A stretch of DNA of 64,000 nt from Pedinophyceae sp. YPF-701. Its lineage: Eukaryota > Chlorophyta > Pedinophyceae. The stretch covers positions 1,798,001 through 1,862,000 of the forward strand of contig CAJZHL010000028.1 in NCBI GenBank assembly GCA_916048055.1. Direction: 5' to 3'. Made by a program: the position numbers and the translations under genes. This document shows, one piece after another, positions 21,271-28,762 of the stretch. The first letter of the stretch is position 1. Each line of letters begins with the position of its first letter. The notes beneath the pieces are model-generated. The model was not told the origin of the DNA and searched no databases. It was given only the letters and a program-made list of their open reading frames with translations.

Positions 21271-23189
21271 CTAGCTCGGAACGCCGGCACCCTCCGCGTA
21301 GCTGTACACCCCGCCCCCCACGCTGCCCTTCAGGCGCTCCAGCTCCTCGTCCCCGTCCAGACCCAGCACGTCCGCCATGCTCGGGCTCTGCGGCACGATC
21401 CCGCCGGCGTTGAGCGGGAACAGCTGCCCGTAGTAGCTCCTCACCGCCGCCTCGACGTCGAACGTCTGCCACGACTGCAGCGGACAGCCGGGGGGCGCGG
21501 CGAGGCCGTACATGCGCCGCATCCACGCCTGGATGGCCGGGTAGTGCGACCCGATGCGCCGTTTGCAGCACTTGAAGATTCCGTTGTACGCAGCGTCGAA
21601 GCGCGCGGCGGTCGGGAACAGCCGCACGTCCGCGTCGGTCACGACGTCGCCGCAGAGAAAGTCCTGCTTCTGCAGCAGCGCCTCGACGCGGTCCAGCGCC
21701 GGCCAGAGCCGGGCCTGCGCGGCGTCGTACGCCTGTTGCGTCGTGGAGAAGCCCGACTGGTACACCGCGTTGTTGACGTCGTTGTACACCCACTCGTCCG
21801 TCTCGTCGATGAGCGCGACCAGGTGGGGCGGGCGGAGGTCGACCCCCGGCAGGTCCGGGGCGACCCGCTGTGCAGACAGCGCGCTGAACATGAGCATCAT
21901 GTCGCCGCTGTTGTCCGTGACGGGCCGCCTCGCGACCTGGTCAACGAGGAACGGGGCTGTGCAGCGGCCGCTGAAGCCTGCGTGGCGTGGGACGGCGGGG
22001 AGCGTGTCGAGGGTGGGTGGTGGGGGGGGACGTGGGGTGAGGTGTGCAGGAGGTGGGCGGGCATTAGGCCCCACAGCCTGGTCCCGAGTCGCACGCGGTC
22101 GACTTTCAAACCGACACACCGCGTTGGGCGGACCGCCGTCTATCAAAACTTTGCGATCTAGCTGAGCAGGTTTCGTCCGCGGTTTCGCCGCGGTTTGCGC
22201 GAGCGAGCGGAGGCTTGTGTGCCGGCGCCCCCACACACGCCATGTGCGCCGTCCCTGGGCAGCTGGGACCGAAGCAAGGCCTATGCGACCGCGTGGGTCG
22301 CTGCCAAGGTCCTCGGAAAGCCGGTGTGCGCGGTCGCGGGCGAGGCGGCGACACTCGATTTCGGCCCATCGACGCGTGGGGACCATGATGTGCTTGGGGA
22401 GTGGGGCATAATGGGCGGCGTCACCTGGGCTCAGGCCGTCGTAGACCTCGCGGAGGTCCTTCGCGCCGAAGATCGGCTCGGGCTCGTCGAAGACCCAGCC
22501 GCCGCGGCTGGCGCGCTCGGCGTCGTCGACGCAGAAGGTCACGTCGATGTGGGCCGCGAGGCCCGTGACGGCCAGCGCGAGGAGCACGCGGTGGCACCAA
22601 GGGCACGCGTTGCCGACGTACAGGCGGTAGCGCTTGGACTCGAAAGGGAATTCGGCACCAGGGGCGGTGGAAATGAAGCCGGTGAAGCTCTGCTTGGGCC
22701 GCTGGTAGGCGCCGTCCTTGCCTTGCGGGGCAAGCTCAGTCATCATGATCACCCACGCCTGCCTCCATCCCGCCTTCACGCCCTTCACCAGCACGCCCTG
22801 CGCGGCAGGACAGAGCACAGCCGCAGCAGTGTGCCCGCGTAGCCGCAGCAGGGGCTCTTCTGGCGAAGTCTGGGGATTCAATGCGCTGATGAGATCTGTT
22901 GAATGAGCTGAGGCTGTACAAAGGGGTCACGCCGCGCCCTCAAACGCGCGCACGCGTCGTGGTGTTGATTGGCTACCTGAGGAACGAGCTTCCCACCCCA
23001 CTCGAGGAGGTTGATGCCCTTGGAGACCTTCTCGGACGACGCTGCCTGCGCCCGTACGGTCCGCTGGCCTCGATGCGCCAGCCGACCGCGCGGCCGAGCA
23101 AACGGCGCCCTGCAAAGCTCTCCGTGCGGTTGGCCTCCCTGCGTCGCCTGGACCCGACCGCCACCGTGATGCAGCGCTCCTCGGTGCAT
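21271..23189 (-). CDS. Glutathionyl-hydroquinone reductase (xi-class GST), plastid type
   Basis: Three exons (23189-22977, 22797-22425, 21977-21271) give about 430 aa. Exon 1 encodes a transit-peptide-like leader followed by SKGINLLEWGGKLVPQ. Exon 2 continues GVLVKGVKAGWRQAWVIMMTELAPQ, the extension typical of plant members of this family. The thioredoxin-fold domain has the active site NACPWCHR (Cys136). The helical domain contains WVYNDVNNAVYQSGF and CGDVVTDADVRLFPTAARFD. Enzymes of this class reduce glutathionyl-hydroquinones. The usual motif is CPWAHR, and here the fourth residue is a second cysteine (Cys139). The insert between exons 2 and 3 (21978-22424) is read as an intron because both junctions are good and in phase 1. 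Confidence 0.92.
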
Positions 23190-23629: not shown

Positions 23630-26295
23630 ATGCCATGGGCTTTGCACTCCGTGGTGAGCGCTGCCGCCGGGCAGGCTGGGCTCGCACTCGACGGCATGCC
23701 GTCGGCTGACGCGGAGGTGCTCCAGGAGCACGGTCCGAGCTGCGGCCTCGCTGCAGTGTTTCATGAGCCCGTCAACTGCGCGGCAGTGGAGCGCCTGAGG
23801 GCCCTCATCACGCGCTTCGAGAAGGCACTGCTGCTGTTCGGGCTGCTCACGGACTACAAATGCAGCAAGTACGCCGCACCGACGCAATGCCGCCCTCGTT
23901 GACAGAAGGAGCTGCCCACAGGCTCCGAAGACTGACATTCCCCTCGGCCTGGCGTACCTCCGCGAGTTGGTGACGCAACCACGCACCCATGCACGGCCGG
24001 TCGTGCCCCACCGCGGCCCCCGACGCGCGCCAAGAGCACAGAATGTACCTCTCGTCGCCGTTCGAGGCCCACCGTGACGCCCGCAACCACCCGCAGGAAG
24101 ATGTGCAAGTTCCGGCCGAAGGCGCAGGTCCACGACGGCGACGTCAGCGCCGAGCACGCCGCAGCACTCGCCAGTCACATGAAGGCCGACGCCGCCAGCC
24201 CGGGCGCGGAGCAGCGCGAGCCCCCGGCGGCGCCCGCGTCGAGCGCGGGGCTTGCGACGAAGTGGAGCTCAGCCAACGGAATGCGCAAACGCGCCGGAAG
24301 CGGGGATCCACACGCGCACCCAGGTCCGGACAACGACAGCGCCGGGGCGCAGGGCGGGGCCGCGCAGCCGGCCGCGAGCGCCGACGACGACCGCTCGACC
24401 CGGGCGTCGTCCACGCTGTCCCAGAACCGCCTGGAGCTGTTCCGCCTGCGCAACATGCTTCCGGAGGACGAGAGCGCCACTCCCCACGCGGGGCAGATCT
24501 GCATGTCGCACAGGTGCGCGCGCTGGACCGCTGCATGCGCCGTCGCGCGGACAGCGGCCTCGGCGCATTGCGGGACTCAGGCGGGCGTGCCGTGCTGTGG
24601 TTGCGGTGCAGGAACGTATGGGGGTGGCTGGCGCGAGGCAAGTGGGTGCTGATTCTCAACGCGTTGATGTGGGCGAACCTCGCGCGCCTAATCATCGGCT
24701 TCACCACGCAGGGGCTCGACGAGCTGGGCCTATCCTGGCAGTCAGCGCTCATCATCAGCCTATGGGTCCCCTACTGCTGCCTGTCCATGCTCATCTTCGC
24801 GTTCAGGTGCGCACCGCTCGCGAGTCCCAGAGCACCACGCGCCTCCCTGGCAGCGCATCCGAGCAGCACGAGCCCGCGTGTGCAGGTTTGGGCCCGGTGA
24901 CATGGAGGCGGTGATGCGGAGCACGCTCGTCACGGCGCACAACGCGGACCGCATCCGGAAGCGCCTCGTCAAGTTCATATGGATCGGCGGCGTGCTCATC
25001 TGCCTCAACGTCCTCACGGTGCCCATCCTGCTGCTTGTCAACTACAACGCGGACCCCATGAGTGACGCGCTCGAGGTGCGCTCGCGCCCACCCGCCTGCC
25101 GCCTGCCGCCTGCCGCCTGCCGCCTGCCGCCTGCCGCCTGCCGCCTGCCGCCTGCCGCCTGCCGCCTGCCGCCTGCCGCCTGCCGCCTGCCGTGCGCCGC
25201 CCGCGGACGCGTCCGTTCGTGCCGCGGGACTGACGTTCGTGCTCCGCGCCCCGTGTGTGTCGTTGCAGCTGGTGCGCATGATCACGTGTCCGCTGATGCC
25301 GCGCTGCACGGAGACGATGGGGATGCTGTGGGGATACACCATCCTCCTCCTTCCACTCCTCTTCCTCTTCTCCGCCGTCTGGCTCCTCCCGCTCATCGTC
25401 TTCACCCTCCTGTGCGAGGTCCTGACCAGCGAGGTGCGATGCTGGCCCCGCGCAACGCTGTTGCCGGTCCGGCCGTGCTCTGTGCGTGCTCAAGCGGTCC
25501 TGCTCCGGCCGCTTCCGGGAGCGGCGCGAGTAGCTGGTGACGCAAGGGGGCTGTCACCGCCCCCACCACCTGACTCATGCGTGCCATCATGCGCTGCGTG
25601 CAGTTCGAGGGCCTGGCCCGGAAGTTTGCGGCGCACGCGCGGTGGCGGATCATGGGTCTGGCGGTCAAGGGCGCGCACAACCCCTTGTGTCCGCGCACGC
25701 AGGCGGCAAAGAAGATCACCGTGCACGACATCAAGCTGCGGCACTCGGACCTCTCCGTGATCGTCAACAACTTCGCCGACCAGGTCCACCCGTACGTCTG
25801 CGTCCTGTACGGGTTCACCCTGCCCCTCGGCGTGTTCCTGCTTTACCAGGTGCTGGCCTTCAGCATCGACCTGTCGCCCGGCTCCCTCGCGGTCACGTCC
25901 TTCTGGCTCCTCGCCGGCCTCGCCATCCTCTTCTGCGTGTCGTACACCAGCGGGCGCCTGTACGAAAGCACCAAGTCAATCGTGCACGAGCTGCTCGACC
26001 CGCGGCTCCAGGCGCTGATGGCGCCGCTCGGCGCGAGCCAGGACGGCGCCGCGCGGTCGCTCCAGGAGCTCATCCTCTTCGCGGTCACGATCCAAGAGAA
26101 GCCGTCCGGAATCAGACTGGGATACGTGCAAGTGACTTTCGAGGTCATGGGCGCCATCGCGTCCATCCTGGTGCGTCGCGCCCCGATCGGCCGTGCTGGG
26201 GTGCGCCGCCGCGCGCATGGTCCGGCCGCTGACATGTTGTCTGTGCTCACGGTGCGCTGCAGATCACATACTTCCTCGTCGTCGTCACGATCTAG
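23630..26295 (+). CDS. Seven-TM gustatory-receptor-like (GRL) protein
   Basis: Seven exons (23630-23868, 24097-24513, 24612-24806, 24886-25075, 25269-25433, 25604-26170, 26263-26295) join in phase to about 601 aa. The first 220 residues are hydrophilic and probably cytosolic. Hydrophobic segments follow at about 231-250, 262-283, 313-336, 366-396, 466-489, 497-516 and 582-601, which makes seven. The loop before the last helix (LQELILFAVTIQEKPSGI) and the final helix (VMGAIASIL then ITYFLVVVTI, stop) follow the pattern of animal gustatory/odorant receptors, whose TM7 carries TY, five hydrophobic residues, then QF. Here the last two are TI. GRL and DUF3537 relatives are known from algae and plants. 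Membership is inferred from topology and motif. Ligand and channel activity are unknown. Exons 1-2 are less certain than 3-7. Confidence 0.7.
25093..25191. repeat. 7-bp tandem repeat in an intron
   Basis: About 14 near-perfect copies of CGCCTGC lie in tandem inside the fourth intron of the receptor-like gene. The array makes the artificial Pro/Ala/Cys/Arg-rich translations seen in all frames here. Confidence 0.9.
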
Positions 26296-26528: not shown

Positions 26529-28762
26529 TTACTTGTCGTTCAGCGCGGCCACGCCCGGCAGCACCTTGCCCTCCAGCAGCTCCAGCGACGCACCGCCGCC
26601 CGTGGAGATGTGCGACATCTTCTCGGCGACGCCGGCCTTCTCGACGGCGGCCACGGAGTCACCGCCACCGATGATGGTCGTGCAGCCCTTGGGCGTCAGC
26701 TCCGCCAGGCAGTTGGCGATGGCGATGGTGCCCGCCGCGAATGCGTCGAACTCAAACACACCCATGGGGCCGTTCCACACGACCGTCTTGCACTCCGAGA
26801 GCTCCTTGACGAACAGCTCGGTCGTGGCCGGGCCGTTGTCCAGGCCCATCCAGCCGTCGGGGATGGCGTCGACGCCCACCGTCTGCGTGTTGGCATCCGG
26901 CGCGAACTTGTCGGCCACGACCACGTCCGTGGGCAGCAGCAGCTTGACGCCCTTGGCCGCGGCCTTCTCCTCGAGCTCCTTGGCGAGGTCCAGCTTGTCC
27001 TCCTCGACGAGCGAGGCGCCGACGTTCAGGCCGCGCGCCTTGAGGAAGGTGAAGACCATGCCGCCGCCGATGATGATCTTGTCGCACTTCTCGAGCATCG
27101 ACTCGATGACGCCGATCTTCGACGACACCTTGGAGCCGCCGACGATCGCGCAGAACGGACGCGCCGGGTCCGTCACGGCGCCCGCCAGGTAGTCGAGCTC
27201 CTTCTGGAGCAGGAAGCCCGCCACCGAGGGCTTCAGGTACTTGGTCACGCCCTCCGTCGAGGCGTGCGCGCGGTGCGCCGTGCCGAACGCGTCGTTCACG
27301 AACAGGTCGGCGTTCGCCGCCAGCTTCTCGGCGAACTCGGGCACGTTCTTGGTCTCCTCCTTGTAGAAGCGCACGTTCTCGAGGATCAGCACCTCGCCGT
27401 TGTTCATCGCGCCGACCGCGGCCTCGACGTCCGGGCCGATGCAGTCGTCGACCTTCTTCACCTGCGAGCGCGCAACGACGCACAACGCGACGGTCAGGCC
27501 ACGAGCCACACGCCCACTCCCGCGTGACACGCGCGCAGCGGCGTGCGGAGCATCGGAGACCGCGCGGGCTTCAAGGGCGAGTACTGCGCCGCCGGAGGGC
27601 GGGGGGGGTGTCGCACCGGGGTGCCGAGGAGCTCGGCGAGGCGAGGCACGACGGGCGTCAGACGGAACTTGTCCTCGGGGCCGTCCTTCGGGCGGCCGAG
27701 GTGCGACGTCAGGAGGACCTTGGCGCCGTTCTCGACGAGGTACTTGAGCGTGGGCACCGCGGCGCGGATACGGGTGTCGTCCGTGATCTTCTGGTCGCCG
27801 TCCAGCGGCACGTTGAGGTCGGCACGCACGAACACGCGCTTGCCCTCGAGGTCTGCGGGGTGCGGTGGCGGGGCCGGCAGGGGTCGGGCGCGGCGCAGCG
27901 GGCTGTGCGCGGCAGTGGGTTCGGCCCGCGGGCGCGCCGTCGAACAGGAGTGTGCAGGGGCAAGCGCTTGATGCCGCCGCGGCTCATGTGAGCCTTGGAG
28001 GGCGTGGGTTTCGCAAGGACTGCGTGCGTCGTAACTTGGAAAGCCGCTGGGGGGGCGGGCAAGCGCGAATACGGCATCTAAGAGGCGCGACGGGGCAAAC
28101 GGGATGCGACTTCGTCCAGGGCTACGCGGCCGCGCGGGGATGGGTTGACGGAAGAACGCGTCCATGAAGTCGCGTAACTTCAACTGGGGGGCAGCCTGCG
28201 CGCCTCGTCGGCTGCGCGGCGTGCGTGTGCGGGCGCGTGCGGGGCACGAAACGTCCGCTCAGGAACCAGGGCGAGTGGAACAGGTTGGGTCCGGCGTCGT
28301 CGCGACCCCGATCTCCCAGACAACGATCCGTACGGCTGGTCCTAGTTGAGAGGAAGCAATCGCGCGCGCGAAGCTGCGCCGTCGTGCGTCACGCGGCGCG
28401 GGAGACGCTGGGCGAGATGGACGATCTGGATGCGACCGAAGGCGCGGTCCAGGCAGCCGCTCTTGCCGTGGTGTACGCGCGAGCGAGATGTTTGTGAACC
28501 AGCGATGCGTGAACGGGCGCGAGGACGCACCAGCCTTGGAGAGGTCGCCGACCGAGGCCTTGTTGGCAGCGGCCTGCACGAGCACGCCCTTGCGCGCGAC
28601 GCGGGTGTTGAGCGAGATCGAGTAGTCGAACGAGGCGACCGACGACTTGAACGTCAGGCGCGGGGCCGCAGCGCGCAGCGCGGGGGCACGGCGCTGAGCC
28701 CTCACGGGCGCAGTCCGGACACCGGCCACGATGCGGGTAGGAGCGAAGGCGAACGCGGGCAT
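26529..28762 (-). CDS. PGK1: Phosphoglycerate kinase, plastid
   Basis: This enzyme interconverts 1,3-bisphosphoglycerate plus ADP with 3-phosphoglycerate plus ATP, in the Calvin cycle and glycolysis. Three exons (28762-28531, 27852-27617, 27461-26529) give about 466 aa. Exon 1 encodes a transit peptide rich in Ala/Arg/Val/Ser followed by ASVGDLSKA. The catalytic protein begins [18 protein letters not shown] and includes [65 protein letters not shown] and the nucleotide motif [12 protein letters not shown], ending [12 protein letters not shown]. All PGK signature blocks are intact. An alternative upstream ATG at 28792 is in frame. The sequence looks like the cyanobacterial-type plastid enzyme of green lineages. 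Confidence 0.96.

What the first reader, a model, noticed from the sequence alone, without database searches (positions are those of the whole stretch)
23630..26295. Seven-TM gustatory/odorant-receptor-like protein in a flagellated alga
Seen: seven hydrophobic helices after a 220-residue hydrophilic N-terminus, a charged loop before the last helix, and a C-terminus VMGAIASIL-ITYFLVVVTI. Known: insect GR/OR ion channels share an intracellular N-terminus and a TM7 motif of T-Y, five hydrophobic residues, then Q-F. Relatives called GRL exist in single-celled algae, and DUF3537 in plants. Inference: this is a GRL member, possibly a ligand-gated cation channel. The Q-F positions are T-I here. It could be a sensory or signalling channel in a swimming cell.
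Basis: partly seen in the sequence, partly recalled or inferred. Interest (0 to 1): 0.85.

Follow-up and report, generated by a model that had tools for sequence, protein, structure and literature searches.

The report
Possible taste-receptor-like channel in alga
A swimming green alga carries two related genes for a seven-helix membrane protein that is laid out like the taste and smell receptor channels of insects and resembles them in the key last helix, so it is probably a distant member of that ancient channel family, although its fold and activity have not been tested.

Summary
A 7-exon gene at 23630-26295 (+) encodes 601 aa, identical to NCBI protein P0001 of Pedinophyceae sp. YPF-701: a 228-residue mostly hydrophilic N-terminus, seven hydrophobic helices, N-inside charge bias, C-terminus SILITYFLVVVTI. 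A paralogue on contig C30 (592 aa, 33% identity) keeps this and ends SILLTYFLVVVTL.

No credible Pfam or PDB relative is found by sequence. Both AlphaFold models are too poor to test the fold. Profile-profile comparison with insect ORs picks TM7 in the OR register and beats class-preserving shuffles (27.06; 0 of 60 reach it; OR vs GR, a known pair, gives 28.58). GRs alone do not beat the null (40 of 60).

Best reading: a divergent member of the seven-TM ion channel (7TMIC/GRL) superfamily, probably a tetrameric cation channel with a TM7b pore. It shows no similarity to the DUF3537 protein on C11 of the same genome, which passes both the DUF3537 and 7tm_7 Pfam cut-offs. New member of a known kind; ligand and role unknown.

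The parts
23630..23868 (+). exon 1: conserved N-terminal block (aa 1-79), contains FEKALLLFGLLTD
   Evidence: 34 of 83 aligned residues of aa 1-84 identical in paralogue
24097..24513 (+). exon 2: low-complexity hydrophilic linker (aa 80-218)
   Evidence: linker aa 85-216 only 25 of 95 aligned residues identical in paralogue
24612..24806 (+). exon 3: TM1 (229-251), EL1, TM2 (261-284)
24886..25075 (+). exon 4: IL1 (285-311, 5 K/R), TM3 (312-334), start of EL2
25269..25433 (+). exon 5: EL2 with CPxxxxC shared by both paralogues (25287-25307), TM4 (364-399)
25604..26170 (+). exon 6: IL2 with KITVHDIKLRH, TM5 (464-488), TM6 (494-516), IL3 with GRLYES, first part of TM7
   Evidence: local alignment of the window protein to Orco runs through this exon to the C-terminus, at a score that 52 of 300 shuffles reach
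26263..26295 (+). exon 7: ITYFLVVVTI-stop, C-terminal part of TM7, position of the OR/GR TYhhhhhQF motif
26117..26292 (+). TM7 / putative pore helix S7b (aa 574-601), split by intron 26171-26262 (phase 0)
   Evidence: best profile match to ORs, ungapped and in OR register

Best explanation
[quoted passage not shown] Shown: seven hydrophobic segments, N-terminus-inside charge bias, long intracellular and short extracellular loops, a C-terminus that stops at the end of a TYhhhhh-polar-hydrophobic TM7, and a paralogue that keeps these. Inferred: four subunits pack through the cytoplasmic ends of TM4-TM6 and IL3/S7a; the four TM7b helices line a cation pore with a ring of Thr593 hydroxyls and a hydrophobic extracellular gate at Ile601 (Leu592 in the paralogue); a ligand in the more variable TM1-TM4 region opens it. 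The two paralogues may form homo- or heteromers. Ligand, location and role (chemotaxis, mating or nutrient sensing in a swimming cell) are guesses.
For: Topology and identical NCBI model. K+R in IL1/IL2/IL3 = 5/10/6 against EL1/EL2/EL3 = 0/2/0; paralogue 6/10/7 against 1/2/0. TM7 profile match, ungapped and in OR register: OR+GR score 24.84, z 3.0, 1 of 160 shuffles reach it; OR alone 27.06, z 4.75, 0 of 60; OR vs GR (known relatives) 28.58, z 3.65, 0 of 60; reversed query z -0.97, 53 of 60. Paralogue motif TYFLVVVTL keeps 3 of 4 motif positions, the window protein 2 of 4. Anchor-plus-pore part (394-601) 97 of 208 identical between paralogues, TM1-TM4 part (229-393) 53 of 165, Fisher p 0.0056 (residues are not independent): the pattern expected of a constant channel with a variable pocket.
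Against: No Pfam family at E<=1; the cores at E<=10 give one chance line. No PDB chain of the family by sequence. Against GRs alone the TM7 match is at null level (14.69, 40 of 60 shuffles reach it), and the C11 DUF3537 protein against the pair too (18.44, 10 of 60). The significant stretch is about 25 residues, while OR vs GR aligns over 127 columns. hhalign probabilities stay at 0.06-3.6%. Pairwise Smith-Waterman z against two ORs is 0.96-1.78 (shuffles reaching: 52, 37, 36, 19 of 300) and against two GRs -0.88, 5.06, -0.09, 2.07; known OR-GR pairs gave 2.9 and 2.36. The gating Gln is Thr in both paralogues; Ala there inactivates BmGr9 (PMC11062906, passages). AlphaFold models have mean pLDDT 45.8 and 44.0.
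Confidence: 0.68

Rival explanations
1. A different, so far undescribed N-inside seven-TM family (transporter, lipid-modifying or organelle membrane protein) whose last helix resembles OR TM7 by convergence.
For: No credible Pfam or PDB match; similarity above null is confined to about 25 residues of one hydrophobic helix; GR and DUF3537 comparisons do not exceed shuffles; no relative outside this genome found (metagenome contigs were not scanned).
Against: The match falls at the one diagnostic site, ungapped and at the C-terminus, in the paralogue pair; loop-length and charge pattern also fit; both proteins stop where OR/GR proteins stop.
Confidence: 0.24
2. A green-lineage DUF3537 protein that has drifted so far that the Pfam model misses it. 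This lies inside the superfamily reading, so its odds overlap with the best explanation.
For: Published green-algal members (Chloropicon, Micromonas) are single proteins described with the DUF3537 group (PMC7746228, section 6); this genome also has a clear DUF3537 gene on C11.
Against: DUF3537 and 7tm_7 models hit C11 and not this gene; the C11 protein shows no significant similarity to the pair (hhalign z 0.62, 10 of 60; Smith-Waterman z -0.28 and -1.16); TM7 keeps TY, whereas the paper calls the motif largely unrecognisable in DUF3537 and green-algal proteins.
Confidence: 0.3
3. A non-functional or mis-annotated reading frame.
For: No transcript evidence examined; no relative outside the genome found.
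Against: 601-aa model agrees with NCBI; paralogue with E 1e-103; all 12 introns of the two gene models begin GT and end CAG.
Confidence: 0.02

Closest known systems
Insect odorant co-receptor Orco (PDB 6c70, 9vqr) and ORs
   Same: Seven TMs, N inside, TM7 with TYFhVhV in the same register and close to the C-terminal end
   Different: 228-residue N-terminus with a low-complexity linker; Q to T at the gating position; 144 against 132 residues between the S5 His and TY (landmarks chosen by eye); no significant similarity outside TM7
Insect GRs (DmGr43a 8jm9, BmGr9 8uvt)
   Same: Topology, landmark spacing (144 against 136 residues), Gly 18 residues before the motif Thr, TM7 motif near the C-terminus
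   Different: Motif Q-F absent; profile score against GRs alone at null level
Green-algal GRL/DUF3537 proteins (Chloropicon primus CpriGRL1, Micromonas pusilla MpusGRL1; PMC7746228, PMC9998090)
   Same: Phylum Chlorophyta, seven-TM layout with large intracellular regions
   Different: Their TM7 motif is described as largely unrecognisable; this pair keeps TYFLVVV and escapes the DUF3537 model. The sequences were not compared directly: they were not obtained here
C11 protein of the same genome (L015 2680-4365)
   Same: Multi-TM protein; passes Pfam DUF3537 (E 1.3e-26, 93.9 bits) and 7tm_7 (E 4.3e-6, 26.7 bits against cut-off 26.6)
   Different: No significant similarity to the window protein; no TY motif in its last helix

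Membership tests
7TMIC / GRL superfamily (criteria of Benton et al. 2020, PMC7746228) | Seven predicted TM helices | tested here: met
   Hydropathy only; window protein directly, paralogue by alignment
7TMIC / GRL superfamily (criteria of Benton et al. 2020, PMC7746228) | Intracellular N-terminus | tested here: met
   By positive-inside count only: 21 K/R in IL1-3 against 2 in EL1-3; no dedicated topology program
7TMIC / GRL superfamily (criteria of Benton et al. 2020, PMC7746228) | Intracellular loops longer than extracellular loops | tested here: met
   148 against 43 residues (boundaries set by me)
7TMIC / GRL superfamily (criteria of Benton et al. 2020, PMC7746228) | Length about 350-500 aa | tested here: not met
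   601 aa; residues 217-601 are 385 aa. The paper asks for most or all criteria, so this alone does not exclude
7TMIC / GRL superfamily (criteria of Benton et al. 2020, PMC7746228) | Reciprocal search finds a GRL/DUF3537 member or no other family | tested here: inconclusive
   Only itself found; no credible other family either
7TMIC / GRL superfamily (criteria of Benton et al. 2020, PMC7746228) | TM7 motif (T/S)Yhhhhh(Q/K/E)(F/L/M), called diagnostic but not definitive | tested here: inconclusive
   2 of 4 positions (TYFLVVVTI), paralogue 3 of 4 (TYFLVVVTL); register match to ORs above shuffles, to GRs not
7TMIC / GRL superfamily | Orco/GR fold | tested here: inconclusive
   AlphaFold single-sequence models pLDDT 45.8 and 44.0
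7TMIC / GRL superfamily | Tetrameric ligand-gated cation channel | not testable with these tools
   needs electrophysiology or structure
Pfam 7tm_7 (PF08395), 7tm_6 (PF02949), DUF3537 (PF12056) | Score above curated cut-off | tested here: not met
   hmmscan; genome searches hit C11 only, 65 hit nothing; the 14 control genomes rang in none of these three

The most novel reading that the evidence does not exclude
A green alga carries an animal-type (OR/GR-like) chemoreceptor channel pair with a recognisable TM7 pore motif, alongside and distinct from a DUF3537 protein, so that both branches of the 7TMIC superfamily were present in an ancestor of green plants (or one was acquired horizontally), and the pair serves as chemosensory channels of a single-celled swimmer.
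Probability: 0.17. Interest if true: 0.78.

Novelty: new member of a known kind. Interest (0 to 1): 0.45.

Why it matters
The ancestry of insect taste and smell channels rests on very divergent sequences. A core chlorophyte with a TY-motif pair invisible to Pfam, in the same genome as a DUF3537 protein that also passes the 7tm_7 cut-off, is useful data for linking the DUF3537 and GR/OR branches, and gives a single-celled swimmer in which a non-animal member could be tested for channel function.

Tried and rejected
Sequence searches: P0001 residues 215-601 and the two-sequence profile A1 returned P0001 alone among 7997 and 7996 scored candidates (capped lists); residues 398-494 returned P0001 alone of 38 candidates at E<=10. 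The paralogue was returned in none of the three, so a matching public model is probably absent or of odd length. A1 patterns in viral contigs (34 stretches, none confirmed) and in prokaryote genomes (147 stretches, none confirmed). PDB by sequence at E<=10: four unrelated chains for A1 (E 1.1-4.3), nothing for the C11 protein or the paralogue.

Structure: AlphaFold of P0001 alone (pLDDT 45.8, pTM 0.31) and of exon 6 alone (44.0, 0.30) are too weak. Foldseek gave 0 hits at E<=0.001, and the 50 of 74 rows shown hold no OR or GR; the 50 rows shown in each VIA-align list hold none either. I draw no conclusion from these absences. The helix pattern (TM4 helix 358-426, TM5 449-488, short helices 522-565, TM7 573-600) looks OR-like but is low confidence.

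Weak or mixed statistics: a default HMM of five OR/GR C-terminal domains scored TM7 best in both paralogues, but shuffles within five residue classes reached it in 163 of 2000 (window) and 29 of 2000 (paralogue), and shuffles within two classes in 35 and 7 of 2000; a build with effective-number weighting off gave 807 and 257 of 2000 (five classes), 653 and 216 (two classes), and its best match in the paralogue was not TM7. The first hhalign run, on the C-terminal parts alone, aligned the wrong part (probability 0.06%). Local hhalign with 100 shuffles each: full core vs OR+GR 0, C-terminal part 3, full core vs OR+GR plus C11 protein 4, C-terminal part 2. Global mode: 4, 15, 5 and 15 of 100, and for the full core it put TM7 on an N-terminal OR helix. 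Smith-Waterman: window protein vs DmOrco runs from IL2 to within one residue of Orco's end (52 of 300 shuffles reach it), paralogue vs DmOrco covers TM7 only (37 of 300); paralogue vs Gr43a z 5.06 (0 of 300) but window protein vs Gr43a z -0.88 (257 of 300); that paralogue alignment stops at TM6 and is slightly off register, so I do not lean on it. 15 hydrophobic ORFs of the window as controls: against ORs 1 of 15 reached the window protein alone and 0 of 15 the paralogue; against OR+GR 0 and 0; against GRs 0 and 5, where the best match of neither was TM7.

[quoted passage not shown] Pfam line Pertus-S4-tox at E 0.099, 13.4 bits against cut-off 25: chance. The PHTF N-terminal model hit nothing, controls neither.

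Full report
What is there. Seven exons at 23630-23868, 24097-24513, 24612-24806, 24886-25075, 25269-25433, 25604-26170 and 26263-26295 (+) give 601 aa. All six introns are GT...CAG, 79-228 bases long. I built the model by eye before searching; the public NCBI protein P0001, 'unnamed protein product' of Pedinophyceae sp. YPF-701, is identical. The assembly is G000 (27.9 Mb, 32 contigs); the species name rests on P0001. The strain is a uniflagellate, wall-less green alga with an eyespot, described as Akinorimonas japonica (PMC12574857, passages only). The gene lies between a glutathione-transferase-like gene (21271-22770, -) and phosphoglycerate kinase (26529-27983, -), which say nothing about its role.

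Anatomy. Residues 1-84 are a block conserved in the paralogue (34 of 83), 85-216 a low-complexity linker (25 of 95), then come seven hydrophobic helices. The positive-inside count places the N-terminus inside: 5, 10 and 6 K/R in IL1-IL3 against 0, 2 and 0 in EL1-EL3. Intracellular loops total 148 residues, extracellular 43, by boundaries that I set. EL2 carries CPxxxxC in both paralogues. The chain ends at I601, the ninth residue counted from T593 in TYFLVVVTI.

A paralogue. Two genome searches, with the window protein and with the paralogue, hit only two places, the window gene and C30 about 213614-216256; the latter, joined by hand, is 592 aa in seven exons. BLASTP: 207 of 621 columns identical, E 1e-103. 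One intron coincides exactly (column 371, phase 0), one within a column (239/238, phase 2), and the first lies near in a gapped stretch (columns 98/92, both phase 2); the other three of each gene differ. Identity is 97 of 208 in the cytoplasmic-anchor-plus-pore part and 53 of 165 in TM1-TM4 (Fisher p 0.0056; residues are not independent, so the p is rough). EL2 (12 of 29) is an exception in the variable outer part.

Is it a GRL? Family profiles say no: Pfam none (one chance line for the core); the DUF3537 and 7tm_7 models ring in this genome only on C11, 7tm_6 and a PHTF model nowhere; the 14 control genomes rang in none of these four searches. Positive evidence is the TM7 profile match. With the two paralogues as one profile against DmOrco, AbOrco, DmGr43a, the 8zdz Gr and a BmGr9 piece, the single best local match is TM7 to S7b, ungapped, ending within three residues of both C-termini: 24.84 against a null of 16.4 (1 of 160 class-preserving column shuffles reach it; an earlier 100 gave 0). 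Against ORs alone: 27.06, 0 of 60. Against GRs alone: 14.69, 40 of 60, though in the same place. The known pair OR vs GR gives 28.58, 0 of 60, over 127 columns, so it rests on a longer stretch. Reversed query: 12.96, 53 of 60. 33 of 160 shuffles also had their best match at both C-termini, so the location alone is not rare (all). Other versions of the test were weaker and are listed under Tried and rejected. This is real but short-range evidence: it could be convergence of one helix.

How it would work. In BmGr9, S7b lines the pore, the motif Thr gives a hydroxyl ring, the last motif residue a hydrophobic plug, and the Gln swings into the open pore (PMC11100771, passages; PMC11062906, passages). 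Here Thr and Tyr are kept, the plug is Ile/Leu, the Gln is Thr in both paralogues. If it is a channel, its open pore and selectivity should differ. The step from family resemblance to ligand-gated channel is inference.

Known background. GRLs in single-celled eukaryotes, including single proteins in Chloropicon and Micromonas with a largely unrecognisable TM7 motif, were described by Benton et al. 2020 (PMC7746228: abstract, sections 5, 6 and 8, passages) and re-examined by structure in Benton and Himmel 2023 (PMC9998090: abstract, part 1 of section 5, section 8, passages). [quoted passage not shown] 2022, seen as a reference; not held), so I cannot say that neither lists these proteins. Searches of the held library for pedinophyte with nuclear genome and receptor, and for DUF3537 with chlorophyte, returned 0 papers.

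Verdict. A real, conserved gene pair; most likely a divergent 7TMIC. New member of a known kind, of moderate interest, raised by the TY motif in a core chlorophyte and by the C11 protein that passes both the DUF3537 and 7tm_7 cut-offs.

Noticed in passing
L015 2680-4365 (G000:C11 499179-500864): Five C-terminal exons, joined by hand, of a DUF3537 protein (93.9 bits, E 1.3e-26) that also passes the insect chemoreceptor model 7tm_7 by a hair (26.7 bits, cut-off 26.6): a sequence bridge between plant DUF3537 and GRs. Its 5' end was not modelled.
   Followed up: partly
L014 1615-4257 (G000:C30 213614-216256): Paralogue of the window gene, 592 aa in seven exons, returned by none of three protein database searches.
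   Followed up: yes
window 25287-25307: CPxxxxC in extracellular loop 2 conserved in both paralogues, a possible disulphide not known to me (recall) from ORs/GRs.
   Followed up: no
window 26171-26262: Phase-0 intron one codon before TYF in TM7; animal Grs have phase-0 introns near their 3' end, but the paralogue lacks this one.
   Followed up: partly
window 25092-25192: Perfect tandem repeat inside intron 4: 14.4 copies of the 7-base unit CCGCCTG.
   Followed up: no
window 21271-22770 (-) and 26529-27983 (-): Neighbours: glutathione-S-transferase-like protein and phosphoglycerate kinase.
   Followed up: partly
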